From Paramesorhizobium deserti (GTDB lineage Bacteria; Pseudomonadota; Alphaproteobacteria; Rhizobiales; Rhizobiaceae), in contig NZ_LNTU01000039.1 in the NCBI RefSeq assembly GCF_001558695.1, positions 186,001 to 250,000 of the forward strand: a stretch of DNA of 64,000 bases, written 5' to 3'. Both the position numbers and the translations under genes were made by a program. Below the pieces are notes generated by a model. That model had not been told where the DNA came from. It saw only the letters and a list, made by a program, of their open reading frames with translations, and did no database searches. Positions 20,794 through 35,225 of the stretch are shown here, one piece after another. How positions within the stretch are numbered: the first letter of the stretch is position 1; each line of letters opens with the position of its first letter.

Positions 20794-21078
20794 TCATCCC
20801 TCCCCTGAGGCCGCGCCGAAAGTGAGCGCTATATCGTCCCGCGTGACGTCATGCAGCGCCTTATGGACCGAGACCTGAATTGTTCGCCCCCCTTGCATAA
20901 CCAGAACAACCGTCTCCTTCGGCGGGCAACCGGGTACATGGCAGGCGAGTTCATTCACCGAGACGACAGCATCATCGGGCAGAGCAAGCGCCTCCCGCGT
21001 CCATTTTTTGATAGCGCGCGCATGGCTTATCACCGCAGGTGTGCCCCGCGCCAGCGGATTGACGAAGGGGCGGCTCAT
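20794..21078 (-). CDS. Small conserved protein with CH...PGCPP motif
   Basis: A 94-residue soluble protein that I cannot assign to a named family. The centre reads NELACHVPGCPPKETVVLVM, so Cys46, His47 and Cys51 could bind a metal. It overlaps the stop-start junction of the GTPase gene upstream by 4 bases and is directly coupled to the methyltransferase gene downstream. Sitting between a COG0523 metal chaperone and other zinc genes, it could be a client or helper of that GTPase. That is inference from position only. Confidence 0.6.
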   Translation of the reverse strand: MSRPFVNPLARGTPAVISHARAIKKWTREALALPDDAVVSVNELACHVPGCPPKETVVLVMQGGRTIQVSVHKALHDVTRDDIALTFGAASGEG

Positions 21079-22205
21079 GCTGATCTCCGTTGCTTTCTGG
21101 ATGAACGCGGCGCCAATACCTCGAAAAGGTCGCGGATCGGTTTTAGCGGCATGTCTTGCCCGATCAGAACCACGCGGCTGCGGCGGTCATCATCCGGCCA
21201 TCGGTCGAGGCGCTGCCGGGGATAGAGCCGACGCTTTACCGCATGGGCGATCAGAGGACGCTCCGGATCTTCGGTAAGGGCGAATATGCCTTTCAGGCGC
21301 AGCAGACCGGAATCGGTATTGCTTGTTACAATGTGGAGGAAGGTATCGACCGCACGCGGATCGAGCGGCACGTCATGAATAAGACTGATTGCTTCGATCT
21401 TGTCGCCATGCCTGTTCGGATCATGGGCGTGGTCCGGATGCCCGACAAGCGCCTCCATCGCAAGCCATCCGGGAACGTCCTCGGCTTTGCCGGATATGGA
21501 ATAGCCGCGCACGCCGAATAGAGCCGGCAAATCGAAACCGGCTCCATGGCGGTCATGATAATGGGCAGCCGGGTTCAGCATGCGAAGGTCCTCGATCCCG
21601 TCGTAACGCTCGCCAAGAAGATCGGTTTTCGTCAGGACGACGTGATCGGCGAAGGCCAGTTGCTTCCAGCCTTCGAGGAAGCTCTCGAGCGTCGTGCGGC
21701 CCGCTATGGCATCGAACGCCGTAATCACTTCCGTGAGGTAATAATGGCGGGCAACGACATGGTCTCTCAACCCCATGGCCGTCACGCCTCCGGAAATGAT
21801 GCTGTTGATGATGGGGCCCGGATCGGCGAGCCCTGTGGTCTCGATCACCACGCGCGAGACGATCGGTATTTCATTGCGAAGCCGCGCTTCATGCAATTCG
21901 TAGAGCGACTGCCGGATATCGCCGGTCGCCGTGCAGCAGATACAGCCAGTCGTGGTGCGGAAATAGGTTTCGGAACCGGCACGAACGAGATCATGATCGA
22001 TCGGAACAGTTCCGAACTCGTTGATGATGACGGCTGTCCCGGCCATCCGGGAATCGGCGAGAATCTCATTGAGCAGCGTCGTCTTGCCCGAACCAAGGAA
22101 GCCGGTCAGAAGCGTTACGGGCACGGGATCATAGAGCCGCTTCATCTCATTATCCAGCGCCTCGTTATCCGGTTTGCGCCGCCGCGCGAACAACCTGCTT
22201 ATCAT
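21075..22205 (-). CDS. COG0523/CobW-family GTPase, putative zinc chaperone
   Basis: G3E P-loop GTPase of 376 residues. Walker A is TGFLGSGKTTLL (about 34-45). The metal-binding CxCC motif is GCICC (Cys88, Cys90, Cys91), Walker B/switch II is VVIETTGLADP, and the base-recognition motif is TKTD. A C-terminal CobW_C domain is present. I start at the ATG at 22205; the frame extends to 22265. It is 71 bases behind the zinc-binding protein gene and in the same operon. COG0523 members in Zur-controlled loci are thought to deliver zinc to key enzymes during starvation. CobW of cobalamin synthesis is unlikely, as no B12 genes are near. Confidence 0.85.
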   Translation of the reverse strand: MISRLFARRRKPDNEALDNEMKRLYDPVPVTLLTGFLGSGKTTLLNEILADSRMAGTAVIINEFGTVPIDHDLVRAGSETYFRTTTGCICCTATGDIRQSLYELHEARLRNEIPIVSRVVIETTGLADPGPIINSIISGGVTAMGLRDHVVARHYYLTEVITAFDAIAGRTTLESFLEGWKQLAFADHVVLTKTDLLGERYDGIEDLRMLNPAAHYHDRHGAGFDLPALFGVRGYSISGKAEDVPGWLAMEALVGHPDHAHDPNRHGDKIEAISLIHDVPLDPRAVDTFLHIVTSNTDSGLLRLKGIFALTEDPERPLIAHAVKRRLYPRQRLDRWPDDDRRSRVVLIGQDMPLKPIRDLFEVLAPRSSRKQRRSA

Positions 22206-22275: not shown

Positions 22276-23217
22276 TCAGCTTCCGAGGATGGCGTTCTTG
22301 ATCGTGTTCACGTTGTAGCGGAACATGTCGATATAGGTGGGCGCCGGACCGTCGCTTCCCGAAAGCGCGTCGGAATAGAGCGTGCCGCCGACTTTCAGGC
22401 CTGTTTCCCTGGCGATTTGCTCAACGAGGCGCGGATTGGTGATGTTCTCGACGAAGATCGCGGACGCCTTGTCTTCCCTCACCTGATCGATGAGCTTGGC
22501 GACATCGGCTGCGGACGCTTCAGCTTCCGTGGAAATTCCCTCTGGTGCAATAAACTTCAGCCCATATTCGTGCTGGAAATAGCCAAATGCATCATGCGAG
22601 GTGATGACCGTCCGCTTTCCTTCCGGGATCGACGCGATGGTGGCTTTCACCTCGGTCTGGAGTGCGGCAAGCTTCGCGAGATAGGTCTTGGAATTCTCCG
22701 TATAGGTGGGGCAGCCGGCCTTGTCCGCCGCGCAGAAGGCGTCGGCGATGTTCTTCACATAGATTTCCGCGTTCGGGATCGATTGCCAAGCATGCGGGTC
22801 GAACTCGCCATGATGATGGTGGCCTTCATGACCATGATCGCCATGTGCGTGACGATGTTCCTCTTCTTCGGCCTTGAGCGGCTCGATGCCCTTGCTCACC
22901 TCGACCACGGGAGCCTTGGTGCCGCTGGCTTCGATCAGGCGCGACATGAAGCCTTCGAACTGGAGGCCGTTGACCAGCACGACATTGGCCTTTTCCAGCG
23001 AAGCGGCGTCCGCCGGGCGCGGCTCATAGACATGGGCGTCACCATCGGGACCGACCAGCGAAGTGATCTTCACCCGATCTCCGCCGACATTCTTCGCCAG
23101 ATCGGCGATGATGGAGAAACTCGCCACCACTTTCAGGTCGGCGGCCGAGGCGGCGGTGGCGAAGCCGCAAAGGGTAAGCAGGCTGGCGCAGGTGACAAGG
23201 CGTAACGTCCTGAACAT
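22276..23217 (-). CDS. aztC: Zinc ABC transporter substrate-binding protein (AztC/ZnuA family)
   Basis: Cluster A-I periplasmic metal receptor of 313 residues. A signal peptide ends near residue 25. Zinc ligands expected from the family are His62 (GDAHVYEP), His142 (FDPHAW) and the His in SHDAFGYFQHEYG. A flexible His-rich loop at about 117-137 (EEEEHRHAHGDHGHEGHHHH) marks zinc rather than manganese receptors. The order ATPase, permease, receptor in one operon, and an AztD-like gene across the divergent promoter, favour the AztABCD type over the split znuA/znuCB layout. Zur control is likely from the boxes at 24905-24950. Confidence 0.85.
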   Translation of the reverse strand: MFRTLRLVTCASLLTLCGFATAASAADLKVVASFSIIADLAKNVGGDRVKITSLVGPDGDAHVYEPRPADAASLEKANVVLVNGLQFEGFMSRLIEASGTKAPVVEVSKGIEPLKAEEEEHRHAHGDHGHEGHHHHGEFDPHAWQSIPNAEIYVKNIADAFCAADKAGCPTYTENSKTYLAKLAALQTEVKATIASIPEGKRTVITSHDAFGYFQHEYGLKFIAPEGISTEAEASAADVAKLIDQVREDKASAIFVENITNPRLVEQIARETGLKVGGTLYSDALSGSDGPAPTYIDMFRYNVNTIKNAILGS

Positions 23218-23236: not shown

Positions 23237-24103
23237 TCAGGCTGTTTTGTGGCGGCCGGAGGTGAGGGCGCTGGCAAGCATCCCCCGCCGGCCCGCCAGG
23301 GCGGAAAACGCATAGATGACGCCGGCCGTCAGGATGATTGCCGGCCCTGAAGGCATGGCGGCGTGATAGGAAAGGAGCAGGCCGCCGATTGACGAAACCA
23401 CGGCGATTGAAATCGCGATCAGGCACATGGCGCGGACCTCGTTCGACCAGAAACGGGATGCGGCCGCAGGCAACATCATCAATCCCACCGACAACAGGGT
23501 CCCGAGCGCCTGGAAGCCGCCCACGAGATTGAGCACGACCAGGATCAGAAAAAGAAAATGCACCGGCGCGCCTATCCGGCTCACGGAGCGAAGGAAAAGC
23601 GGATCAAGGCATTCCGCCACCAGTGCGCGCCAGAAAATCAGCAGAACGACGAAGGTGACGAGGGCAATGCTGACGATCAGGGCCAAGGCTGCGTCGTTCA
23701 ACGCCAATACTGATCCGAAGAGGACATGCATGAGATCGACACTCGAGCCTCGCCAGGAGACCAGCAAGACACCGACGGCAAGAGAGATCAGATAGAAGGC
23801 CGCCATCGAGGCGTCCTCCTTCTGGATGGTGAAGCGGGCGACCACGCCGGAACCGAGCGCGACGAGCAGCCCAACCAGCAAACCACCGATTGTCATGGGA
23901 ATGATGTCGAGGCCGAAAAACACGAAGCCGAGGGCTGCGCCCGGAAGAATGGCATGCGCCATCGCGTCGCCCGTCAGGCTCATCCGCCGCAACATCAGGA
24001 AAACGCCCACCGGCGCGCAGCTCACCGAAAGGACCAACGAACCGAACAGCGCGCGCTGCATGAAACCATATTGCAGAAACGGGGAAAGCAGCATGTCAAA
24101 CAT
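23237..24103 (-). CDS. aztB: Zinc ABC transporter permease (AztB/ZnuB family)
   Basis: Metal-type (ABC-3) permease of about 288 residues with eight or more hydrophobic helices. It carries the family regions LMLRRMSLTGDAMAHAILPG and LLSVGLMMLPAAASRFWS. The start MFDMLLSPF at 24103 overlaps the end of the ATPase gene by 8 bases; an upstream frame to 24133 lacks support. It lies between the ATPase and receptor genes with a gap of 19 bases to the latter. As a homodimer it passes zinc from the receptor into the cytoplasm. Confidence 0.87.
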   Translation of the reverse strand: MFDMLLSPFLQYGFMQRALFGSLVLSVSCAPVGVFLMLRRMSLTGDAMAHAILPGAALGFVFFGLDIIPMTIGGLLVGLLVALGSGVVARFTIQKEDASMAAFYLISLAVGVLLVSWRGSSVDLMHVLFGSVLALNDAALALIVSIALVTFVVLLIFWRALVAECLDPLFLRSVSRIGAPVHFLFLILVVLNLVGGFQALGTLLSVGLMMLPAAASRFWSNEVRAMCLIAISIAVVSSIGGLLLSYHAAMPSGPAIILTAGVIYAFSALAGRRGMLASALTSGRHKTA

Positions 24104-24872
24104 GCGCGGCAACCTTCCCGTATTTCCGATCAAGGACCGCCGCCTGCTCTTCGCACCACCCGGACGCGTCGTCCCATGCTTCCTGAAATCCTCTCGCTCG
24201 GGCGAGATTATCGCGCGTGAGCACCTCCGGCGTCGGCCCCCACGCCACCGGCTTTCTTGCCATCAGAAGAGTTCTTGGAAAATGCTCACGCACAAGCGCA
24301 TGGTCATGGAGGACGCACAGCACCGTCCTCCCTTCCGCGACCCAACCCTTTATTAGCGCGACAAGATCGACGATTGTACGCGCGTCCACGGCATTGAACG
24401 GCTCATCCAGCAGGATGAAGTCCGCATCCTGAACCATGGTGCGCGCGAACAGTGCCCGCTGCATCTGGCCGCCGGAAAGGCTGTCCAGCGCGCGTTTCTC
24501 GAAGCCGTCCAGGCCCACCGCATCGAGGCAGCGGCCAAGCGCCACCCGGTCGTCAGCCGAGACGCGCCCCAAAAGGCCGCGCTTCTGCCAATACCCAAGT
24601 GAGACGAGATCGATCACGCGGGCTGGAAACGTTCGGTCGAGCTCGGATTGCTGCGGGAGATAAGCCAGCCGCTTGAAGCGCGTCACGCATGAGCCGCTGA
24701 TCGGCTTGAGGATGCCGGCGATGCCCTTCATCAGTGTGGATTTGCCCGATCCATTCGCGCCGACGATCGCCGTCAGCGACCCCGATTTGACCTCGCCGCT
24801 CAGGTGATGAACGGCGGCGTGGCCCTCATAGCCAAGCGTCAGGTTTTTGAATTCTACGCAAATGTCGCTCAT
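24096..24872 (-). CDS. aztA: Zinc ABC transporter ATP-binding protein (AztA/ZnuC family)
   Basis: ATPase of 258 residues. Walker A is AIVGANGSGKSTLMKG, the signature LSGGQMQRALFART, Walker B FILLDEPFNAVD and the H-loop VLHDHALV. The ATG at 24872 follows GAGGATGCG; upstream in-frame codons to 25019 run through the regulatory region and are not used. It is the first gene of the zinc operon and is transcribed away from the AztD-ZinT gene, with Zur-like boxes in the 119-base gap. Confidence 0.88.
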   Translation of the reverse strand: MSDICVEFKNLTLGYEGHAAVHHLSGEVKSGSLTAIVGANGSGKSTLMKGIAGILKPISGSCVTRFKRLAYLPQQSELDRTFPARVIDLVSLGYWQKRGLLGRVSADDRVALGRCLDAVGLDGFEKRALDSLSGGQMQRALFARTMVQDADFILLDEPFNAVDARTIVDLVALIKGWVAEGRTVLCVLHDHALVREHFPRTLLMARKPVAWGPTPEVLTRDNLARARGFQEAWDDASGWCEEQAAVLDRKYGKVAAHV

Positions 24873-24991: not shown

Positions 24992-26794
24992 ATGAGACTG
25001 TCTCTCGCCCGAAGCCCACTGACGGCTGCAGTAGCCGCGACGTTTGTCCTCACCGCGCAGGGCGCGCTTGCAGATGACGATCCCGAAACGAAGAAAGCCT
25101 GGCGCCTGTTTGTCGCCGACCATACGCAGCCGATCGTCCGTGCCATCGATTTCGAAACCGGCAAGGAGCTTGGCCGCTATGATGTGAAGGGCCATGCGGC
25201 GCTGACCGCCAGCGCCTCCGGCCAGACCATATTCGCCACCCAATCGGAACATGACATGGTGAATGTCATCAAGAGCGGCATCGAATTTTCCGATCATGGC
25301 GATCATCGCGATCTGGACGTCTCGGATGTCGCGCTTCTTCCGGTTACCTTGCAAGGCCCGCGCCCGAGTCATGTCGTCCCGCACGGGGACCATGCGGTCA
25401 TCTTCTACGACCGGGGCGGCAAGGCGGACATTATCGATGAAGCGGCACTCCTCGAAGGCAGGACGGACGTCCGTAGCGTCGATACGACAAAGCCCCATCA
25501 CGGTGTTGCCGTGACCATGGGACGTCACGTCCTTGTCTCCGTCCCGGACACGCAAGCCGACACACCGCCGGACAAGCTGCCACCCCGTATCGGTCTGCGG
25601 GTTGTAGACAAGGACGGCAAGCAGGTCGGCGAGATGGCCAAATGCACCGACCTGCATGGCGAGGCGACCTCCGCGCGCCTCGTTGCTTTCGGCTGCAAGG
25701 AAGGCGTGCTCGTCGCCCGTCCGGGCGGCGCCGACGGTCCGAAGCTGGAGATGGTCCCCTACCCCACCGATTTCCCCAAGGGCTATACCAGCACGCTGCT
25801 CGGCGGCAAGGCGATGCAGTTTTTCCTTGGCAATTACGGAGAGGATAATGTCGTCCTCATAGACCCGGATAATGAGAGCCCCTACCGGCTGGTCGAGCTT
25901 CCAACCCGGCGCGTGGATTTCCTGCTCGATCCGGCAACGCTTCGCAATGCCTATATCCTGACTGAAGACGGCAACCTTCAGGTGCTCGACGTCATCAAGG
26001 GCGAGATCGTCCGCAAGGGCAAGGTCACCGAACCCTACAGCAAGGATGGCCACTGGCGCGATCCGCGTCCGCGCCTGGCAGTTGCCGATGGCCAAATCGC
26101 GATCACCGATCCGCGGCACTCGACCGTCCGGGTGATCGATCCCGAAACGCTAAAGGAAATCCGAACGATTCCGGTGGAAGGCCAGCCCTTCTCGGTCGTC
26201 GCCGTCGGCGGTTCCGGGGCTGACCACGGGCACAGCCATGACCATGCTCATGATCATGATAACCCGGTCTACAAAGGCTATTTTGACGACAGCCAGGTCA
26301 AGGAGCGCGCCCTGTCGGACTGGGCGGGCGATTGGCAATCGGTCTATCCCTATCTGCGGGATGGAACGCTCGATCCGGTGATGGCGCACAAGGCAAAGCA
26401 GGGTGACCAGTCCGCGGACGAATACCGGGCCTATTACGAAATCGGCTACCGGACGAACGTCGAGCGGATCGAGATTAAGGGCGACACGGTAGAGTTCTTT
26501 GAGAACGGGAAGCCGCTTGAGGCCCGCTATGCCAACGACGGCTATGAGATCCTGACATATAAGAAAGGCAATCGCGGCGTGCGCTTCATCTTCAAGAAGA
26601 TAGCGGGTGACGAAGCCGCCCCTCAATACATTCAGTTCAGCGACCACAAGATCGCACCTGAGGCCGCCGACCACTATCATCTCTACTGGGGCAACGATCG
26701 CGCCGCCTTGCTGGAGGAAGTGACGAACTGGCCGACTTACTATCCATCCTCCTTGAGCGCGAAGGAGATCGTGCGTGAAATGATGGCGCACTGA
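24992..26794 (+). CDS. aztD: Periplasmic zinc chaperone: AztD-like propeller fused to a ZinT domain
   Basis: A 600-residue exported protein with a signal peptide (to about residue 28) and two zinc modules. Residues about 35-405 look like the AztD beta-propeller: RLFVADHTQPIVRAIDFETG, repeated HGD/HG segments, and ITDPRHSTVRVIDPETLKEI. A His-rich linker at about 411-423 (DHGHSHDHAHDHD) follows. Residues about 426-600 match ZinT (YodA) along their length: GYFDDSQVKERALSDWAGDW, SVYPYLRDGTLDPV, TYKKGNRGVRFIF and NWPTYYPSSLSA. The ZinT ligands are kept as His552, His561 and His563. Usually these are separate proteins. It probably captures periplasmic zinc and hands it to the importer encoded divergently. 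Confidence 0.85.
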   Translation: MRLSLARSPLTAAVAATFVLTAQGALADDDPETKKAWRLFVADHTQPIVRAIDFETGKELGRYDVKGHAALTASASGQTIFATQSEHDMVNVIKSGIEFSDHGDHRDLDVSDVALLPVTLQGPRPSHVVPHGDHAVIFYDRGGKADIIDEAALLEGRTDVRSVDTTKPHHGVAVTMGRHVLVSVPDTQADTPPDKLPPRIGLRVVDKDGKQVGEMAKCTDLHGEATSARLVAFGCKEGVLVARPGGADGPKLEMVPYPTDFPKGYTSTLLGGKAMQFFLGNYGEDNVVLIDPDNESPYRLVELPTRRVDFLLDPATLRNAYILTEDGNLQVLDVIKGEIVRKGKVTEPYSKDGHWRDPRPRLAVADGQIAITDPRHSTVRVIDPETLKEIRTIPVEGQPFSVVAVGGSGADHGHSHDHAHDHDNPVYKGYFDDSQVKERALSDWAGDWQSVYPYLRDGTLDPVMAHKAKQGDQSADEYRAYYEIGYRTNVERIEIKGDTVEFFENGKPLEARYANDGYEILTYKKGNRGVRFIFKKIAGDEAAPQYIQFSDHKIAPEAADHYHLYWGNDRAALLEEVTNWPTYYPSSLSAKEIVREMMAH

Positions 26795-26881: not shown

Positions 26882-28105
26882 ATGCTCGACACAGCCAAAT
26901 CCTCCAATCGCCTTCCCGTCACGGTCCTCTCCGGCTTCCTCGGAGCCGGCAAGACGACGCTTCTCAATCACATCCTCGCCAACCGTGAGGGAATGCGTGT
27001 CGCCTTGATCGTCAACGACATGAGCGAGGTCAATATCGACGCCGCGCTGGTGCGTGATGGCGGAGCGAACCTTTCCCGCACCCAGGAGCAGCTCGTGGAA
27101 ATGACCAATGGCTGCATCTGCTGCACCTTGCGGGACGATCTTCTCAACGAGGTTCGGGCGCTCGCCGAAGCGGGCCGCTTCGACTATTTGCTGATCGAAT
27201 CGACCGGCATCGCCGAACCCCTCCCGGTGGCCGCGACCTTCGACTTTCGCGACGAGAATGGCCACAGCCTTTCAGACCTCGCCCGGCTGGACACGATGGT
27301 GACGGTCGTCGATGCCGCCAATCTCCTCAAGGATTACGCCTCGTCGGACTTCCTGTCCGACCGCGGCGAAACGGCCGGCGACGGCGACAACCGCACGCTT
27401 GTCGATCTGCTCGTCGAACAGATTGAATTCGCCGATGTCGTTATTCTCAACAAGATCAGCACCGCCACGCCGGACCAGCGCGACGCCGCCCGCAAGATCA
27501 TCGTCGCGCTCAATCCTGATGCGAAGCTGATCGAAGCCGATTTCGGCAAAGTCGATTTGAAGGAGGTGCTGGGCACAAACCGCTTCGACTTCGCCAAGGC
27601 CGAAACACATCCCCTCTGGTTCAAGGAACTGCATGGTTTCCTGGACCATGTACCGGAGACGGAGGAATATGGCATCCGCTCCTTCATCTACCGCGCCAGA
27701 AAACCCTTCGATCCGATGCGCTTCCAGGCATTCATAGACAAGCCATGGCCCGGTGTCGTCAGGGCCAAGGGCTTCTTCTGGCTCGCGACGCGGCCACATT
27801 ATGTCGGGGAAATCAGCCAGGCGGGGGCACTGGTGCGCACCGGCAAGACGGGGCTGTGGTGGTCATCCGTCCCGAAGGAACGCTGGCCACAGGATCCGGG
27901 CTTCCTTCAGATAATGAAGCCTTATCTTGATCCCGTCTGGGGCGACCGGCGGCAAGAGATCGTCTTCATCGGCGCCGATCCGATGGATGAAGCCAAAATC
28001 CGCGCCGAACTTGACGCGTGCCTTATGGACAGCCCGGTTTTCGTGCCGGAGCTCTGGCGCAATCTTCCGGACCCGTTCGCAAGCTGGGAGCGGAGCGCCG
28101 CATGA
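26882..28105 (+). CDS. zigA: ZigA-type COG0523 GTPase, putative zinc metallochaperone
   Basis: A G3E GTPase of 407 residues. Walker A is [15 protein letters not shown] (16-30), the CxCC motif GCICC has Cys78, Cys80 and Cys81, switch II is [10 protein letters not shown], and NKI is the base-specificity motif. The long C-terminal CobW_C domain contains [19 protein letters not shown], typical of the ZigA/YciC-like subgroup seen in zinc-starvation regulons. It lies 87 bases after the AztD-ZinT gene on the same strand, so the upstream Zur boxes may control it too. It is distinct from the GTPase at 21075-22205. Why two are needed is unclear. It converges on the DUF2149 gene. Confidence 0.83.
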
Positions 28106-28114
28106 ACATGACGA

Positions 28115-28441
28115 TTACTCGGCTGACTTCCCACTATTTTCGGGCACATAGATCATGCGGCCGTCATCGAGACGATAGGTGATGCCGGCCCGCACCCCCT
28201 GCCCTTCGCCGATCTTTCCGTTGGCTTCGTAGCGGGTAAGTTCGCGGCCATCCTTGACGGTGATGCGCATGTCCGCCTCGCCGGGGTTTTCGATAACGGT
28301 CACCTTCTGCGATGAGAACGGATTGAGCGGATTGGTGACGATCACGATCATCAGGATGCCTGTTACCACGAGGAAGAGGTCGATCAGATTGACCACCGAC
28401 AGGATCGGATCGTCTGCGTCGTCATGGTCGAGGAAGCGCAT
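28115..28441 (-). CDS. DUF2149-family membrane protein (HmuT/ExbD-like partner)
   Basis: A 108-residue protein with one N-terminal helix (SVVNLIDLFLVVTGILMIVI) and a soluble C-terminal part facing the periplasm. This gives it the shape of ExbD/TolR. The N-terminal FLDHDDADDPILSVVNLIDL is typical of DUF2149. Its ATG overlaps the stop of the ExbB-like gene (ATGA). DUF2149 genes recur beside CobN-like and ExbB-like genes in haem (hmu) loci. Here it is the last gene of the receptor operon and probably forms a proton-driven motor with its neighbour. In-frame extension upstream is antisense noise within the ExbB-like gene. Confidence 0.78.
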   Translation of the reverse strand: MRFLDHDDADDPILSVVNLIDLFLVVTGILMIVIVTNPLNPFSSQKVTVIENPGEADMRITVKDGRELTRYEANGKIGEGQGVRAGITYRLDDGRMIYVPENSGKSAE

Positions 28442-28905
28442 CAGGCGGCACCTCCGGCGCGTTCCAGCGCGCGCAGTTCCTCGAGCAGCCACCGGCGTCG
28501 GATCGTCAGGACAAAGAAGGTGATGCTGGCAGCAACGAGCGCCAGGATCACCGCCGAAAATGCGACGACGAGGTTGTTTCCGACGGAGGCCGCATTGCCC
28601 TCCCCCAGCGCCAGCAGGGCCGGTCCCATAGGGATCATGGTGGCGACAAGCCCAAGCATCGGCGCGGCGCGCGAGACGATGCGCAGCCATTCCAGCCGCT
28701 TCATGATCTTGAGTTCCAGATCATCGCTATGGACACCGCTGCCCGCAAGCACCGAGCGGTGATTTCCGCGCCAGCGCTGCACGGCTTCCACGAGAAACAT
28801 ACCGAGCACGACGAGGGCATAGACCAGTGCCCCAACGATCAGGGCAAGGACCGGGAAAAGGAAAAGGCGGGAAACCTCGAAAAGGCTGAGTTCAAAACTG
28901 CTCAT
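28441..28905 (-). CDS. MotA/TolQ/ExbB-family proton channel protein
   Basis: A 154-residue membrane protein with three hydrophobic segments, shorter than full ExbB. The conserved core RIVSRAAPMLGLVATMIPMG and the last helix AFSAVILALVAASITFFVLT fit the MotA/TolQ/ExbB family. The ATG at 28905 begins MSSFELSLFEVSRLFLFPVL. It lies 23 bases behind the CobN-like gene and overlaps the DUF2149 gene. The pair probably powers either the TonB receptor of this operon or the membrane-anchored CobN-like protein. A dedicated TonB gene was not seen in the window. Confidence 0.82.
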   Translation of the reverse strand: MSSFELSLFEVSRLFLFPVLALIVGALVYALVVLGMFLVEAVQRWRGNHRSVLAGSGVHSDDLELKIMKRLEWLRIVSRAAPMLGLVATMIPMGPALLALGEGNAASVGNNLVVAFSAVILALVAASITFFVLTIRRRWLLEELRALERAGGAA

Positions 28906-28928
28906 GAAACACCATTGCTTGCGGTTAA

Positions 28929-31900
28929 TTATGGACGGCGCGCATTCGCACGCCATTGCCAGCCCGCGCCAATGGTGACGAGGCCAAGCATGAGAAGAAG
29001 CGACAGCCACTGCCGCCATTTGTCGGATGTTTCGCCCTTTGGCGGAACCTGCTCCAGCACCTGCCCCTGTATCGGCTGCGACGCGTTGGCAACCGGCGAC
29101 GTGTTACTCTCCGGACCAGACGGGCTCTGGTCCGCCTCAGCCGTCGATGCTGAAAGGCCGAAACCGGCGGCAAGCTGCTCGATGAATGCCTTGGTCAGCG
29201 GTTCACCCACATCGACGCCGTGATCGGCGGCAAGTTCCTGCCAGCGCTCCGCCAGCTGCCGGCGGGTCGCATCGGGAGCATCCCAATAGCCCTTGCGGAT
29301 CGCCTCGACCATGCGCTCGATCATCTGGGCTTGCGCGGTCGGGTTATGCTGCTCGAAATAGTCCTTCATGCCGAGATTGCGCGTGTCGGCCACATAGGTA
29401 TCGAACATGGCCCGCCATTGATCGGCCCGCACCGTGGAAGGATCGACCACTTGCCAGCCGAACAGATTGTTGGCGGCATTGAGCATGGCGAGCGTCCCGG
29501 CATAGCCCTCCGCCTTCATGCCCTCGATCCAGTGCGGGTTCAAATAGCGCACGCGCAACTCATCCGAGAGGAAGCGCGCGAGCGGCGTGGTCGCCGGGGC
29601 TCCATTGCGCAGGTCCGAGACGTAAAGCGACGGGCTCTCGCCGTCGAGATGGCGGATGGCGAGCGACAGGCCGCCCATGAACTCGAAGGGATGGTCGGTG
29701 GAAAGCACGCCATGCAGATTGGAGGAGCGGGACATGACGACCGCCTGCGCCCCCTTCAACTGCTCGCCAAGGAGATTGGCGCCCTTCGGACTGATGCCCC
29801 ATGCCCGGGCACCAAAGGCAAAGCGGGTGCCGTCGAGGAAGCGCTGGGCAAGCGTCGAATCTTCGTCCCATGTGGTGGAGCGCAGGGCCATCTCCGGCAG
29901 GCCGGAACCGTAGCTCCCCGGCGCATTGCTGAAGATGCGCAAGCGCGCCTGCTCTTGCGCCTCGGCATGCGAGACGCCCTTTGCGGCAAGCGCCGCAGCG
30001 ATACGTCTGCTGTTGGTAGCGACCGGATTGCCGCTTCCATCCAGCGCGGCAATTCGATCGATCGCATCGGCCAGAAGCCGCATGAAACTGTCGAACTGGT
30101 CGCGATAGACGCTGGTCACCTGCACCACCACGTCGATGCGCGGCCGGCCCAGTTCAGCCACCGGGATGATCTCCAGCGTGCGCACCCGACCGCCGTCGTC
30201 CCATACTGGTTTCAAGCCCAGCGCGTGAAGCACCTGTGCCTCGGTGACGCCGAGATGGCGCACCGCCTCCGACGACCACAGGCTGAAGGCCAGCTTCGTA
30301 GGCCACGTCCCGCCATGGTCCTTGCGAAAGGCTTCAACGAGTTGCCCGAAGGCCTCGCCGCCTGCCTCGTAAGCTGCCTTTGTCGGTATCCGGTCCTGCT
30401 CGAAAGCATGGAGATTGCGACCGCTCTTTACGTCGGGATTGCGGATGGGATCGCCGCCCGCGCTTGAAGCGATGAAGCGGCCTTCCAGCCCCGCCAGCAG
30501 CGCCTCGATCTCGCCCGGAGCGGCGAGATTGGCATCCAACGTGTCGGCACGTGATAAAAGCCCCTTTAGCGGCTCATCCAGCGAAGCCCGGTCCGCGCCG
30601 TCACGCAGATATTTTTGCAGCGTTGCGAACGGCGCCGTCTCCTTCAGCTTGGCAAAGTCATCTACAAACAGTTCGTCGCCACTTGCGCCCACGGCATCAT
30701 AGAATGGCTGGCCCAACTGCTGCATGACGGTCGCCAGCCGGTGATCCGGATCGGCGGGCAGGCCGAAAGTATGAAGCCCCAATGGCATCGCCGTGCGCGC
30801 AAGCTCGTGAAGATGGTCGTGCAGGACAGGCAGGAAGGCAGCGAAATCTCGCCTCACTGCCTCTTCGGTCCAGCCGAGATCGGCATGCATGTTTGCCTTG
30901 ATCGCGGCATCCGCGATCTCCTTCGCGGTCCTGTCGCGAACGGCGCCCTCATCGAGCTGCGCATAGTCATGGATCAGGTGATGGATGTCGCGCAACTCGT
31001 CATAGAGGCCGGAGGGCGCGAAAGGCGGGGTCTGGTGACTGATCGTCACCGCACGACCGCGCCGCCGCGCCTGAAGCGCCTCGCCCACATTGTCCTGGAT
31101 ATAGGGGTAGAAGACCGGCACATTGCCGACCGCGAGAAACGGATCGTCATCGGCGGCAAGCCCCCTGTCCTTGCCCGGCAGCCATTCCTGGGTGCCATGC
31201 GTGCCCAGATGGATAATGGCGTCCGCGCCGAAGGCCTCATGCAAATAGAGGTAGGCCGCCATGTAGAGGTGATCGGGCGGGCTCGCCGTGTCATGGTAAT
31301 GAGCGCCCATCGTCGCTGCGCGCGGCATCTGCGGCATGATGAGCAACTTCCCGCGCTTGAAGGCAGGGATGATGAAACTGGGCCGTCCATTCACCTCGCG
31401 CACAGCCCAGTGTTTTTCCGGCTTGCCCCAATGGGAAAAGGCGCGGCGCTTTTCCGGGGTCAGCGTCGCAAGCCAGCGCTCATAGGTCTCGACCGGGAGA
31501 GTCACCGCGAGATTGCGTTCGATGAGGTTCTCCAGCGGCACCGTGCGGTAGAGGCCGCCCAGCATCGCCTGCCCGGCGGCGATCATCTCCGCCTCCGAAA
31601 GCGGCGCAGTATCGTAGCCTGCCCGCGAGAGCCGCGCGGTGATGACCTCGATGCTCGCCGGCACATTGAGGTTCGAGGCGGCGAGGTTCTTCTCTCCGGC
31701 GGGATAGTTCCAGAAGAGAAGCGCCAGATGCTTCCTCGCCGCTGGCTTGCGGCGCAGGGCGACGAGGCCTTTCAGTTTCCCCACCAGCGCATCGAGCTGC
31801 GCCGGGATCGGGACCTCCGCCCCCTCCTCTACAGCCGTCAGCACGATCGGGTCGATCATGCCCCAGCTTTCGGGACCGGCGAGAAAGACGGCCGCCGTTC

Positions 31901-32810
31901 TCGCCGGAATGCCCGACGCCGCCATGGCCCATTCCCGCAAGCCGCCTTCGCGGAAGCCAACCGTCTGGATGACGGGTATATCGAGATCGAGAAACTCGGC
32001 GCTGCGCGCCGATCCATTCTGCATATGGGTGAGGTTGACGATAGCGTCCGTCTTTGCCGGTCGCGCCACTTTCGTCAGGCCCTCGGGATCAGCACCATCG
32101 AACCAGAAAACGAGCGGTATCAGCCCGGCGGCCTCGCTGCGCGCGATGAGCGCATCGATCAGCCCTGTCTGCATGCCGGAAACCGCATTCTGATGGATAA
32201 CAAACCCGACCTGGCCCGTCGCGTCCTTCCAGCGGCTGGCACCCCAGGCAAGATAGGCGTCGAGCGTCTGGAAGACATGTGGCGCCACCGGATGGTAGAA
32301 GCCGGTGGCCGGGAGCCGTTCCGCCGCCGCGAAACCATCGAGGTTCCCGCCCTCCTTCCAGGAGCGGACAAAGGCGAAGAAATTGCGGAAGTTCTCCGTC
32401 CCGCCTCCCGCATAATAGCCGATGAGCGCGGAAGCTTCGCGTGGCGCGATCCCCTTCCATGCGGGCCGGCCGCCACCAATGGTAATGGCGGGAACCGCCG
32501 AAGCGGCGAGCCTTCCGCCCAGCGCCTGTTCGACGCGTGCGCGATCATTGGGCCGAGGCACGTCGAGAACGATGAGGTCCGCGCCGGACAGCCATTCATC
32601 CGGTGGCGTCCTCGCCGTTTCCACATCGATGGATTCGAGCGTGACACCGGCCTCTTCTGCGATGGGACGGAGCGCCTCGAACTTGGCCGGCAGGACGAAG
32701 CTGTCGGTCACCACGCGCACGACCGGGCGGGAAACGTGCGTGGCATCCTGAGCGTGCGCCGCTCCCACAACGAGAACAAGCACCAGATGAATCAGGCACA
32801 AGATACGCAT
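28929..32810 (-). CDS. CobN/HmuS-like chelatase subunit, exported and membrane-anchored
   Basis: A 1293-residue protein of the CobN/BchH/HmuS class. An N-terminal signal peptide (MRILCLIHLVLVLVVGAAHA) and a C-terminal helix (WLSLLLMLGLVTIGAGWQW, then Arg-rich end) place the body in the periplasm, unlike cytoplasmic cobaltochelatase CobN. The family core is intact: IIHLGTHGTQEWLPGK with His534 and His538, then YPYIQDNVGEALQARRRGRA and SGLYDELRDIHHLI. No cobS, cobT or other B12 gene is near. It begins one base after the TonB receptor gene and precedes ExbB-like and DUF2149 genes, as HmuS does in haem loci, where it is thought to act on the metal-tetrapyrrole bond. A zinc-releasing dechelatase role is inferred from the Zur context. 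Confidence 0.82.
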   Translation of the reverse strand: MRILCLIHLVLVLVVGAAHAQDATHVSRPVVRVVTDSFVLPAKFEALRPIAEEAGVTLESIDVETARTPPDEWLSGADLIVLDVPRPNDRARVEQALGGRLAASAVPAITIGGGRPAWKGIAPREASALIGYYAGGGTENFRNFFAFVRSWKEGGNLDGFAAAERLPATGFYHPVAPHVFQTLDAYLAWGASRWKDATGQVGFVIHQNAVSGMQTGLIDALIARSEAAGLIPLVFWFDGADPEGLTKVARPAKTDAIVNLTHMQNGSARSAEFLDLDIPVIQTVGFREGGLREWAMAASGIPARTAAVFLAGPESWGMIDPIVLTAVEEGAEVPIPAQLDALVGKLKGLVALRRKPAARKHLALLFWNYPAGEKNLAASNLNVPASIEVITARLSRAGYDTAPLSEAEMIAAGQAMLGGLYRTVPLENLIERNLAVTLPVETYERWLATLTPEKRRAFSHWGKPEKHWAVREVNGRPSFIIPAFKRGKLLIMPQMPRAATMGAHYHDTASPPDHLYMAAYLYLHEAFGADAIIHLGTHGTQEWLPGKDRGLAADDDPFLAVGNVPVFYPYIQDNVGEALQARRRGRAVTISHQTPPFAPSGLYDELRDIHHLIHDYAQLDEGAVRDRTAKEIADAAIKANMHADLGWTEEAVRRDFAAFLPVLHDHLHELARTAMPLGLHTFGLPADPDHRLATVMQQLGQPFYDAVGASGDELFVDDFAKLKETAPFATLQKYLRDGADRASLDEPLKGLLSRADTLDANLAAPGEIEALLAGLEGRFIASSAGGDPIRNPDVKSGRNLHAFEQDRIPTKAAYEAGGEAFGQLVEAFRKDHGGTWPTKLAFSLWSSEAVRHLGVTEAQVLHALGLKPVWDDGGRVRTLEIIPVAELGRPRIDVVVQVTSVYRDQFDSFMRLLADAIDRIAALDGSGNPVATNSRRIAAALAAKGVSHAEAQEQARLRIFSNAPGSYGSGLPEMALRSTTWDEDSTLAQRFLDGTRFAFGARAWGISPKGANLLGEQLKGAQAVVMSRSSNLHGVLSTDHPFEFMGGLSLAIRHLDGESPSLYVSDLRNGAPATTPLARFLSDELRVRYLNPHWIEGMKAEGYAGTLAMLNAANNLFGWQVVDPSTVRADQWRAMFDTYVADTRNLGMKDYFEQHNPTAQAQMIERMVEAIRKGYWDAPDATRRQLAERWQELAADHGVDVGEPLTKAFIEQLAAGFGLSASTAEADQSPSGPESNTSPVANASQPIQGQVLEQVPPKGETSDKWRQWLSLLLMLGLVTIGAGWQWRANARRP

Positions 32811-32811
32811 G

Positions 32812-34764
32812 TCAGAACTTCGCCCGCATACCGATAAAATACCGCCTGCCCTCATCCGCGAAAGCGTAATCACCGGACTCGTCGGCAAGCCTGATGTCCC
32901 CGATATTCTCGATGCCGAGTTGGAGGCTGGCATGGTCGTTCAAGGCATAATCGCCATAGACCGAGATCAGCGTATAGGCCGGCTGGCGACCCGACGCCGT
33001 CGTCGTCTTCTGCGAGCCGATATAGTTGACGCGCAGCGAGGTCTTCAGCTTCTCCACCGGTTCCCAGCTCACCGTCGCGTTGGCGGCGTGGCGGGAGCGG
33101 TCGGGCAGGCGTTCGCCGGTTGTTTTATCGATTGCGTCGAGCCAGGTGTAATTGGCGTCGAGCCGCATGTCCCACGGCAGTTCGACGCCGCCGCCGATCT
33201 CGACGCCGCGAATGCGCGCCTCATCGACATTCTCATAGGACCAGATCGCGCCGGGAGCACCGGCGCAGCGAGTGACGCAGACCGCCTGGATGAGATTGTC
33301 GACATTGTTCTGGAATGCCATGGCCCGGGCCGACCAGATGCCCTGTTGATACTCGAAACCGGCCTCGAAGGAGAGATTCGTCTCCGGTTCAAGATCAGGA
33401 TTGCCGACGATGGTGAAACGGCCGCCGCCGGCAATGGCCTCGTATTCGGGCGAAAGCTGCTTCAAGGTCGGCGCCTTGAAACCCGCGCCCACACCGCCCT
33501 TGAAGGTAAGCGCATCGTTGACATGGTAGAGAAGATAGGCCCGCGGGCTCGCATGCCAGCCGAACGCATCGTGATGATCGAAGCGGCTGCTGGCCACGAG
33601 CTCCCATTGATCGCCCAAGAGGATTTCATCCTGAATGAAGGCGGCAAAATGCGTCTGCTCGGCCTGTCCTGTGTCGTTGACGGTGGGATCGTCAAGCCGT
33701 TCCCGGCGGACCTCGCCACCGATCGTCACCTTATGGTTCTCGAAGGGCGAGAAGCTGGCATGGGCATCGCCGACCGTATCGGTGAATTTCTGCGGACCGG
33801 AGACCGGCGCGCCGTCGCTGCGCTCGTTCTCACGCTCCAGCATGGAGCTGTAGATGCGAACCCGGCTTGTGCCCCAATCCCAATTGCCCTCATGCGACAG
33901 CGAGATACGCTGCCGTCGGATATCGTCGTCAGAGCGGTAGAAAGTGGGGAAACGTCCGGCGCCTTGCGTATTGCGCCAGCGTTCCTCATACCCCGCGCCG
34001 TAGGAAAGATCGATGCGCTGCTGCGCATCCGGCGTCCAGGTCAGTGTCGCGTTGCCCGTAAAGGCGTCCTCATCGCCCAGGGAGGACAGCCTTGGATCTT
34101 GCGGAGAAACCAGTTCCTCGCGGCCGCGGTACTGGCCCCAGATATTAAGGCCCAAAATACCTGGAACGATTGGACCGCCGGCATAGCCGCTGACATTATA
34201 GCCGTCGCCGCCCCGGCCATGCTCCGTCAGCGAACCGAAGGTCGAGACCGAGCCGCGCCATTTGTCGGTCGCCTGCCGTGTGATGATATTGACCACGCCG
34301 CCCAGAGCCTCCGAGCCGTAAAGCGAGGACATCGGCCCGCGAACCACCTCGATCCGCTCGATCGCTTCGGGTGGCACCCATCCCAGCTCATAATCCGAGT
34401 GGGCGATGGCCGAAGCCGAATTGCTGACGCGCATGCCGTCCACCAGCACCAGAGTCTGTTCCGGCAGCATGCCACGGATCGAGATGCCGCGGCGACCAAG
34501 TCCGATGCCCGTGAGTTGGACCCCGGGCGTGCCCTCGATCGCCTGGGCGAGGTCATGCACCGGCCGCTCACGCAACTCTTCGCCGCTGACGACCGTGACG
34601 CTTGCCGGCGCATCCTTCAGGAATCGTTCGCCCGAGGTAGCCGTAACGACGATGGGTTCGAGCAATATCGTACCGTGTTCAGGCGTCTGAGCATAAGCGC
34701 CGGTTGGTCCGGAGGCCGCAATAGCTACAAGAATAGAAAAATTCCGCAACAACCGGTCGCGCAT
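32812..34764 (-). CDS. TonB-dependent outer-membrane receptor
   Basis: A 650-residue receptor. It has a signal peptide cleaved near AYAQ, a TonB-box-like LLEPIVVTAT, and a plug domain (ASVTVVSGEELRERPVHDLA, then RGMLPEQTLVLVDGMRVSNS and IERIEVVRGPMSSLYGSEAL). A 22-strand barrel ends in the C-terminal Phe of FIGMRAKF. It resembles the CirA/BtuB/HmuR group more than siderophore receptors. Two Zur-like palindromes lie 35-67 bases before the ATG, so it is probably induced by zinc shortage and imports a zinc complex. It heads an operon with the CobN-like, ExbB-like and DUF2149 genes. Confidence 0.87.
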   Translation of the reverse strand: MRDRLLRNFSILVAIAASGPTGAYAQTPEHGTILLEPIVVTATSGERFLKDAPASVTVVSGEELRERPVHDLAQAIEGTPGVQLTGIGLGRRGISIRGMLPEQTLVLVDGMRVSNSASAIAHSDYELGWVPPEAIERIEVVRGPMSSLYGSEALGGVVNIITRQATDKWRGSVSTFGSLTEHGRGGDGYNVSGYAGGPIVPGILGLNIWGQYRGREELVSPQDPRLSSLGDEDAFTGNATLTWTPDAQQRIDLSYGAGYEERWRNTQGAGRFPTFYRSDDDIRRQRISLSHEGNWDWGTSRVRIYSSMLERENERSDGAPVSGPQKFTDTVGDAHASFSPFENHKVTIGGEVRRERLDDPTVNDTGQAEQTHFAAFIQDEILLGDQWELVASSRFDHHDAFGWHASPRAYLLYHVNDALTFKGGVGAGFKAPTLKQLSPEYEAIAGGGRFTIVGNPDLEPETNLSFEAGFEYQQGIWSARAMAFQNNVDNLIQAVCVTRCAGAPGAIWSYENVDEARIRGVEIGGGVELPWDMRLDANYTWLDAIDKTTGERLPDRSRHAANATVSWEPVEKLKTSLRVNYIGSQKTTTASGRQPAYTLISVYGDYALNDHASLQLGIENIGDIRLADESGDYAFADEGRRYFIGMRAKF

Positions 34765-34798
34765 CGACGCCCCTTCCCACCGTGAATCGTTAACTTTT

Positions 34799-34831
34799 TG
34801 TTATAACATCTCGCTATGTTATGAAATAACA
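34799..34831. promoter_or_regulatory. Tandem Zur-like operators upstream of the TonB receptor operon
   Basis: TGTTATAACA at 34799-34808 is a perfect palindrome. TGTTATGAAATAACA at 34817-34831 is a perfect TGTTAT/ATAACA inverted repeat around GAA. This is the best match in the window to the Zur operator type, and it shares the GAAATAAC core with box B of the azt promoter. The spacing of about 18-20 bases between centres could allow two dimers to bind. The receptor ATG is 35 bases downstream. Confidence 0.7.
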
Positions 34832-35225
34832 AAACGCAATAGGGAAGGTTTGTGCAGAGAGGCGCCAGCGGCAGTCAGACGAACCTTTACCGCTTCAACG
34901 GCCTGATCGCTGTCTTGCAACCGTTCGCCGAAAAGAAATTGCTGCGGCCAGGAAGCAACCGCAGCCACGTGGCCACTGTCTGATGGCCAATCGCAAACTT
35001 CGCCTGAACGACGTTTAATAGGGGAGTTGAAGGGCTACAAACCGCGTCCCTCTCGCCGTCATTCTCGGGCTTGTCCCGAGAATCTACCGCAGCTTAATCT
35101 GTAAGGACGGTAATCGCTTATCTTTTTCTTTATGGCAGATTCCCGGGACAAGCCCGAGAATGACGGCAGGACAAAGCATTGTTCCGCCAGCGTATCCATT
35201 CTACCTGAAAGACTCTAACCGGTCA
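34832..35225. other. Gene-poor gap between zinc island and racemase operon
   Basis: About 390 bases without a supported gene. A GTG-started frame of 43 codons at 34852-34983 (centre GLIAVLQPFAEKKLLRPGSN) has no recognisable family and no ribosome binding site. The main structure is the inverted-repeat element at 35056-35166, listed separately. No terminator with a T-tract was seen. Confidence 0.5.
35056..35166. repeat. MITE-like element with 30-bp terminal inverted repeats
   Basis: The left arm at 35056-35085 begins CCGTCATTCTCGGGCTTGTC. The right arm at 35137-35166 is its inverse, with 29 of 30 positions matching. The 51-base centre is AT-rich and non-coding. The arm sequence is of the kind found in short interspersed repeats of Rhizobiales. 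It has no transposase, so it is a non-autonomous or fossil element. The whole could fold into one long hairpin. Confidence 0.65.

What the first reader, a model, noticed from the sequence alone, without database searches (positions are those of the whole stretch)
28115..34831. Zur-linked receptor/CobN-like/ExbB-like/DUF2149 operon: a possible zinc-dechelation uptake system
Seen: a TonB receptor, an exported CobN-like protein, an ExbB/TolQ-like protein and a DUF2149 protein are packed with gaps of 1 and 23 bases and one overlap. A perfect TGTTAT-GAA-ATAACA palindrome lies in front, and zinc-uptake genes adjoin. Known: the same gene set (hmuR, S, T, U) occurs in haem loci, where HmuS is CobN-like and is thought to act on the metal-tetrapyrrole bond. 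Inferred: here the set is controlled by zinc and may pull zinc out of an imported chelate in the periplasm. I know of no described zinc version with this full set.
Basis: partly seen in the sequence, partly recalled or inferred. Interest (0 to 1): 0.88.

Follow-up and report, generated by a model that had tools for sequence, protein, structure and literature searches.

The report
Zur-controlled zinc uptake operon with dechelatase
A bacterium related to Mesorhizobium carries a zinc-starvation operon whose central enzyme resembles one that pulls iron out of haem, so it may pull zinc out of an imported chelate; the gene set was already known from Pseudomonas but its chemistry is untested.

Summary
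Receptor (TBDR), CobN-like, ExbB-like and DUF2149 genes lie on the minus strand (34764-28115), with gaps of 1 and 23 bases and a 1-base overlap. Next door are aztABC, an aztD-zinT fusion and zigA. The palindrome at 34817-34831 is the only perfect one in the 5.48 Mb genome, and a one-mismatch copy lies between znuA and znuCB-zur. So this is very probably a Zur operon for zinc. The claim that no zinc version is described is wrong: P. aeruginosa PA1922-PA1925 is, by its published gene content, the same set, Zur-bound and zinc-repressed, but its CobN protein is read there as a cobaltochelatase. New here: the CobN-like protein belongs to a 17-member clade (alpha-, beta-, gammaproteobacteria). Zur-like boxes precede 12 of 17 members, against 3 of 29 other module loci. 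The clade is predicted to be exported and anchored, and is closest in the PDB to the haem dechelatase HmuS. It keeps both cleft histidines, lacks Met79 and adds a cleft histidine. DUF2149 weakly resembles ExbD over its membrane helix. Best reading: a zinc-chelate dechelatase, possibly driven by the ExbB/DUF2149 pair rather than by AAA+ ATPases. Substrate and chemistry are unproven.

The parts
34817..34831 (.). Zur box, perfect palindrome TGTTATGAAATAACA
   Evidence: only perfect site in the genome; same motif (1 mismatch) at znuA/znuCB-zur
34799..34808 (.). adjacent palindromic stretch TGTTATAACA, possible second Zur contact
   Evidence: sequence; overlapping 3-mismatch matches
32812..34764 (-). 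TonB-dependent outer-membrane receptor (CirA-like, 650 aa)
   Evidence: Pfam Plug and barrel; best NCBIfam CirA, below cut-off
28929..32810 (-). CobN-like putative periplasmic dechelatase (1293 aa; N-terminal signal-like stretch, C-terminal hydrophobic anchor; H538, H1033, H1040 in the predicted cleft)
28441..28905 (-). ExbB/TolQ/MotA-like inner-membrane protein (154 aa)
   Evidence: Pfam PF01618; conserved GLxATMIPMG stretch
28115..28441 (-). DUF2149 protein (108 aa), ExbD-like: one membrane helix with conserved Asp21, then a predicted beta-rich part (low-confidence model)
26882..28105 (+). ZigA zinc metallochaperone GTPase (convergent neighbour)
   Evidence: NF038288 above cut-off
24992..26794 (+). 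AztD zinc chaperone fused to a C-terminal ZinT domain
   Evidence: NF038015 and PF09223
24096..24872 (-). AztA zinc ABC ATPase
   Evidence: NF040873 above cut-off
23237..24133 (-). AztB zinc ABC permease (start codon uncertain)
   Evidence: NF040871 above cut-off
22276..23217 (-). AztC periplasmic zinc-binding protein
   Evidence: NF040870 above cut-off
21075..22205 (-). second COG0523 (CobW-like) GTPase
   Evidence: PF02492 and PF07683

Best explanation
A zinc-starvation operon repressed by Zur. The TonB-dependent receptor brings a zinc chelate, probably a Zn-tetrapyrrole such as Zn-coproporphyrin or a Zn-chlorophyll breakdown product, into the periplasm. There the membrane-anchored CobN-like protein, a relative of the haem dechelatase HmuS, removes the zinc in its central cleft using H538, H1040 and probably H1033. 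The free zinc passes to AztD/ZinT and AztC or ZnuA and enters through AztAB or ZnuBC. The ExbB-like and DUF2149 pair sits with the CobN-like protein and may supply proton-motive work to it. Status of the steps: gene set and locus context shown; Zur control strongly inferred; export and anchoring inferred from sequence; dechelation, substrate and motor role inferred.
For: Zur: one perfect box in the genome; same motif at znuA/znuCB-zur; boxes with at most 2 mismatches upstream in 12 of 17 clade loci against 3 of 29 other module loci, and with at most 1 mismatch in 10 of 17 against 1 of 29; fewer label changes on the tree than in any of 500 shuffles (6; shuffle minimum 9; 98, 101). Zinc neighbours in 7 of 17 clade loci: azt and zigA in the window; zigA-like, Fur-family, DksA or azt genes at L030, L031, L032, L054, L055, L063. 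Dechelatase: best PDB relative is HmuS 9d26 (623 bits against 518 for ChlH and 515 for CobN; 125). His538 is conserved in 17 of 17, and the HmuS His1209 position is His in 17 of 17 clade members but Asp in the three true CobN rows. The 44 module CobN-like rows that reach the C-terminus have a hydrophobic C-terminal stretch; the four CobN/BchH rows do not. The genome has a separate CobN that groups with true CobN (21, 54). The same published gene set is strongly induced without zinc in P. aeruginosa.
Against: I saw no enzyme or transport data for any member of this clade. HmuS Met79, one of the two site-1 haem ligands, is absent; the His254-like residue is missing in 3 of 17 members and MAFFT does not put it in the HmuS His254 column, only HMMER does. 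Five of 17 clade loci have no box with at most 2 mismatches (L057, L058, L059, L064, L069; 86). At 2 mismatches the motif is not enriched in the whole genome. The N-terminal hydrophobic stretch is weak in L060, perhaps by start choice. The set is rare: DUF2149 in 3 of 101 family and 9 of 385 class genomes. Published authors favour free zinc or cobalt for PA1922-PA1925. The receptor's ligand cannot be read from sequence; the Bradyrhizobium receptor (L061) is only distantly similar (31% over 143 residues; 93).
Confidence: 0.5

Rival explanations
1. Free-zinc import: the receptor takes up Zn2+ like ZnuD, and the CobN-like protein is a zinc-binding or handling protein without dechelatase activity.
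For: This is the view in reviews of PA1922-PA1925. In 16 clade receptors aligned (L069 has none in the operon), two loop cysteines are shared by 12 of 16 (11 with CxxxC spacing) and histidines H398 and H559 by 16 of 16.
Against: A 1300-residue chelatase with both cleft histidines conserved is not needed to bind Zn2+. The CobN-like/ExbB/DUF2149 core recurs in other contexts where a tetrapyrrole is the likely cargo.
Confidence: 0.22
2. Cobalt or corrinoid handling under zinc shortage: the set imports cobalt or a corrinoid, and the CobN-like protein moves cobalt.
For: CobN homology; cellular cobalt rose in the P. aeruginosa znuA mutant. Related modules sit beside cobalamin genes (L033; L079).
Against: The genome has a separate CobN. 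The clade has His where true CobN has Asp in the cleft. The protein appears exported, and no AAA+ chelatase subunit is among the ten proteins scanned at the locus. The L079 module lies outside the zinc clade (L033 was too short for the tree).
Confidence: 0.12
3. Chelate making: the CobN-like protein inserts zinc into a porphyrin in the periplasm to make a secreted zinc carrier, and the receptor reimports it.
For: CobN and ChlH insert metals (established knowledge); Zn-coproporphyrin III was detected in co-culture of Streptomyces and Mesorhizobium.
Against: No porphyrin exporter or synthesis gene among the ten proteins scanned at the locus. The nearest solved relative works in the removal direction.
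Confidence: 0.06
4. Haem-iron dechelation under zinc control: the substrate is haem and zinc regulation is incidental.
For: Closest structure is HmuS; the gene set is a subset of hmuYRSTUV.
Against: HmuS Met79 is absent and the operon lacks hmuY and hmuT; Zur boxes and zinc neighbours; no Irr-like box near the operon (pattern recalled; Fur and RirA sites were not scanned).
Confidence: 0.07

Closest known systems
P. aeruginosa PA1922-PA1925 (cirA-like TBDR, CobN-like, 'ExbD', DUF2149 protein)
   Same: Published gene content and order, predicted Zur site, strong induction by zinc depletion, promoter bound by Zur.
   Different: Its CobN-like protein is discussed as a cobaltochelatase; within Pseudomonas its Zur control was called unique to P. 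aeruginosa.
hmuYRSTUV haem operon of Bacteroidota, dechelatase HmuS (PDB 9d26)
   Same: TBDR, anchored CobN-like, MotA/TolQ/ExbB and DUF2149 genes; His538 and His1209 conserved.
   Different: No HmuY or HmuT; no Met79; His in place of HmuS Trp1202; Zur rather than haem context; separate place in the tree.
Cobaltochelatase CobN and Mg-chelatase ChlH/BchH
   Same: Class I chelatase family by sequence.
   Different: The CobN-like protein has an N-terminal signal-like stretch and a C-terminal anchor, lies with ExbB/DUF2149, and has His where CobN has Asp.
AztABCD / ZnuABC / ZigA zinc systems
   Same: Adjoining or present in the same genome.
   Different: AztABC and ZnuABC carry zinc across the inner membrane and ZigA is a chaperone (established knowledge); none contains a chelatase.

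Membership tests
Zur regulon | Zur box of the genome's own type ahead of the operon | tested here: met
Zur regulon | Zur binds and zinc represses | not testable with these tools
   shown for the P. aeruginosa PA1922 promoter and operon in print
HmuS heme dechelatase family | His538 in HxG(T/A)HG and His1209 in the DHxxEFMGG motif | tested here: met
   window HLGTHG and DHPFEFMGG; L060 has HLGSHG; HmuS LSL is LST here
HmuS heme dechelatase family | Met79 and His254 at the head/neck haem site | tested here: not met
   Met79 absent; a His aligns with His254 in the HMMER alignments but not in MAFFT
HmuS heme dechelatase family | complete hmuYRSTUV operon | tested here: not met
   the window operon has four genes, none hmuY or hmuT
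HmuS heme dechelatase family | removes metal from a porphyrin | not testable with these tools
   needs purified protein
CobN cobaltochelatase | passes an NCBIfam CobN model | tested here: met
   NF004644 1786 bits, cut-off 1248; the model name does not show function
CobN cobaltochelatase | Asp at the second cleft position and groups with true CobN | tested here: not met
ExbD/TolR (for DUF2149) | one N-terminal membrane helix with the conserved Asp | tested here: met
   helix 12-36 in a low-confidence model
ExbD/TolR (for DUF2149) | hits PF02472 | tested here: not met
   E-values up to 10

The most novel reading that the evidence does not exclude
CobN-like + ExbB-like + DUF2149 is one general machine: a periplasmic, membrane-anchored metal dechelatase driven by the proton-motive force. 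An ExbB/ExbD-type motor (DUF2149 being the ExbD part) replaces the AAA+ ATPases of CobN and ChlH. Separate clades serve haem iron, zinc and perhaps nickel and corrinoids, and the clade here is the zinc version with a three-histidine cleft.
Probability: 0.3. Interest if true: 0.85.

Novelty: new variant of a known kind. Interest (0 to 1): 0.58.

Why it matters
A Zur-controlled gene set, strongly induced by zinc starvation in P. aeruginosa, has had no settled function for its largest protein in the papers seen. Linking that protein to HmuS gives a testable chemistry (zinc removal from a chelate in the periplasm) and points to zinc tetrapyrroles as a possible nutrient. If the ExbB/DUF2149 pair drives the chelatase, it would be a new job for the ExbB/ExbD motor family and would explain two poorly understood proteins (HmuU and HmuV) of a widespread gut haem operon.

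Tried and rejected
Rejected: an Irr-type iron box as the controller (no site near the operon; pattern recalled; Fur and RirA sites were not scanned). Rejected: the ExbB/DUF2149 pair as simply the cell's TonB energiser. Canonical ExbD genes are present elsewhere in the genome (2 copies) and in 26 of 26 genomes searched (own and 25 relatives), and the Trichlorobacter locus has both the module and its own ExbB-ExbD-TonB. Not conclusive: receptor cysteines and histidines as a zinc-ligand signature. Weak: the AlphaFold model of DUF2149 (mean pLDDT 58.9; a helix then strands), so no fold search was run. The survey of 369 genomes of the class of G671 found DUF2149 in 21 but no zinc-clade member by identity to the window proteins. 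PAO1 sequence could not be obtained. The DUF2149/ExbD profile match is short (15 columns, probability 56%), and 1 of 100 helix-only column shuffles scored higher.
Full report
What is there. The window lies in a 5.48 Mb genome of 41 contigs. The nearest named hits for the CobN-like protein are Mesorhizobium sp. RMAD-H1 (90% identity) and Phyllobacterium phragmitis (83%), so it is taken to be an alphaproteobacterium. The CobN-like protein starts with a signal-like hydrophobic stretch and ends with a hydrophobic anchor (hydropathy only; no signal-peptide program was run). Convergent with the operon is zigA, then an aztD-zinT fusion and divergent aztABC. A separate CobN gene that groups with the S. 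meliloti CobN is elsewhere in the genome.

Zur. The box at 34817-34831 is the only perfect match in the genome. Four further sites have one mismatch, and one of these lies between znuA and znuCB-zur; the other three showed no zinc gene that I recognised (by eye). At two mismatches the genome shows no enrichment over the reversed pattern. The 15-bp palindrome agrees with the Zur motif published for Paracoccus denitrificans (passages of PMC5387054). This makes Zur control very likely here, though it was not measured.

Is the set conserved with zinc? I fetched DUF2149-bearing loci from samples of the class, phylum and family (DUF2149 in 9 of 385, 17 of 398 and 3 of 101 genomes, of which 7, 17 and 3 are over the family cut-off), 15 relatives of the CobN-like protein from named genomes, and 11 of the 40 plasmid hits listed. 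A tree of 49 CobN-like, CobN and BchH proteins puts the window in a clade of 17 with support 100 (SH-aLRT, quick method). L033, L056 and L068 were left out of the tree because they are partial; L034 has no CobN-like gene, its contig ending beside DUF2149. In 16 of the 17 loci the order is TBDR, CobN-like, ExbB, DUF2149 on one strand; the Azospirillum locus (L069) has a TBDR only some 4 kb after the set. Zur-like boxes with at most 2 mismatches lie upstream in 12 of 17 clade loci and in 3 of 29 other module loci (Fisher p 4.6e-5), although as much or more sequence was searched per locus in the others. L034, L056, L068 and the four CobN/BchH rows were not counted. Related loci are not independent, so I also counted label changes on the tree: 6, against a minimum of 9 in 500 shuffles (45 rows, L033 not included). 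Clade loci without such a box: L057, L058, L064, L069 and L059, the last with 3-mismatch sites. The exceptions outside the clade are L033 (beside cobalamin genes), L039 (its match reached by 18% of shuffles) and L043. Zinc-linked genes (zigA-like, Fur-family, DksA, azt) adjoin in 7 of 17 clade loci: the window, L030, L031, L032, L054, L055 and L063; the zigA-like pieces in L054 and L055 are short, and the listing of neighbours covered 13 loci and was partly cut. No ZigA-like ORF was found in the comparison loci. L031 also has a methyltransferase gene upstream of the receptor, as PA1921 is for PA1922.

What the CobN-like protein is. A profile of 13 sequences (10 of the clade, 3 of its sister group) matches HmuS (9d26) best in the PDB: 623 bits, then ChlH 518 and CobN 515. 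In HmuS, His538 and His1209 face each other across the active cleft, and H538A abolishes activity; Met79 and His254 hold a second haem (PMC12583661: abstract, sections 5 and 23 and passages seen). In the clade, His538 and the His1209 position (H1040 in the window) are His in 17 of 17. The three true CobN rows have Asp at the second position, as do 21 of 26 other module rows; 4 of those 26 (the sister group L048, L065-L067) have His. H1033 aligns with HmuS Trp1202 in the cleft and is His in 16 of 17 clade rows and 0 of 26 other module rows, and His in the three true CobN rows. Met79 is absent. A His (H262) that HMMER aligns with His254 is present in 14 of 17 and in 0 of 26 others, but MAFFT does not place it in the same column as HmuS His254. 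So the catalytic pair of a dechelatase is kept while the haem-specific second site is changed. This fits a different metal-chelate, and zinc is the metal that the regulation names. The substrate is inferred.

The ExbB-like and DUF2149 pair. Of 45 DUF2149 matches from the genome samples, 42 have an ExbB-like gene within about 1.5 kb, and the three without are the three below the family cut-off; 37 of 45 have a CobN-like gene in the same short stretch. Receptors are less constant. DUF2149 has a near-invariant Asp in its membrane helix. Its profile (41 rows) aligns with an ExbD profile (28 rows, from 31 loci) over that helix, at Asp25 by recalled E. coli numbering: score 32.0 over 15 columns; 0 of 100 whole-column shuffles and 1 of 100 helix-only shuffles reach it; reversed ExbD and ExbB give 17.9. 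Pfam does not link DUF2149 to ExbD even at E 10. The AlphaFold model has low confidence but shows one helix and then strands. In the ExbB-like protein the second-helix Thr is conserved in the aligned rows, while a third-helix Thr seen in the more distant rows is Val in this clade and several others (by eye), so the proton path may differ from ExbB. The C-terminal hydrophobic stretch is present in the 44 module CobN-like rows that reach the C-terminus and absent in the four CobN/BchH rows; the N-terminal stretch is weak (under 1.0) in 5 of 45 module rows, perhaps by start choice. The HmuS paper assigns HmuU and HmuV to receptor energising, and a later paper says HmuV has no homology to any known family (PMC13227078, passages). 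Because the pair follows the CobN-like gene more closely than the receptor, and because CobN and ChlH need AAA+ ATPases that cannot work in the ATP-free periplasm (established knowledge), I propose that the pair drives the chelatase. This is inference.

Novelty. The zinc version is in print for P. aeruginosa (passages of PMC4542158, PMC8531726, PMC11761036, PMC8456098, PMC9431628, PMC10393844). What I did not find in the listings and passages seen, with searches, is a link from that protein to HmuS, a zinc-dechelation role, an ExbD kinship of DUF2149, or Zur-box conservation of this set beyond Pseudomonas. The library holds open-licence papers only, and I read no paper whole.

Noticed in passing
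window 24992-26794: AztD zinc chaperone fused to a C-terminal ZinT domain in one 600-residue protein.
   Followed up: no
L033 1-4413 and 5094-11525: A divergent TBDR-ExbB-DUF2149-CobN-like set beside cobalamin genes (cobT, cobS, cobQ, cbiB, cobU types), with a 1-mismatch Zur-like box upstream of the receptor.
   Followed up: partly
L077 1-11845 (Runella plasmid): The same module lies between hypF, a urease accessory gene and hypCDE, suggesting a nickel version.
   Followed up: no
L079 1-13033 (Trichlorobacter plasmid): Module near bzaF together with a separate ExbB-ExbD-TonB set and two receptors.
   Followed up: partly
L043 13485-17366: CobN-like protein that lacks the HxGTHG histidine yet sits in the same module with a 2-mismatch Zur-like box.
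   Followed up: no
L030 14378-15118; L031 14041-14676; L032 15672-16439: A DUF1826 gene next to zigA in three zinc-clade loci; unknown function, possibly part of the zinc response.
   Followed up: no
window 35060-35170: Inverted repeat with arms like ATTCTCGGGCTTGTCCCGAGAAT, about 80 bases apart, upstream of the operon; looks like an interspersed repeat (by eye).
   Followed up: no
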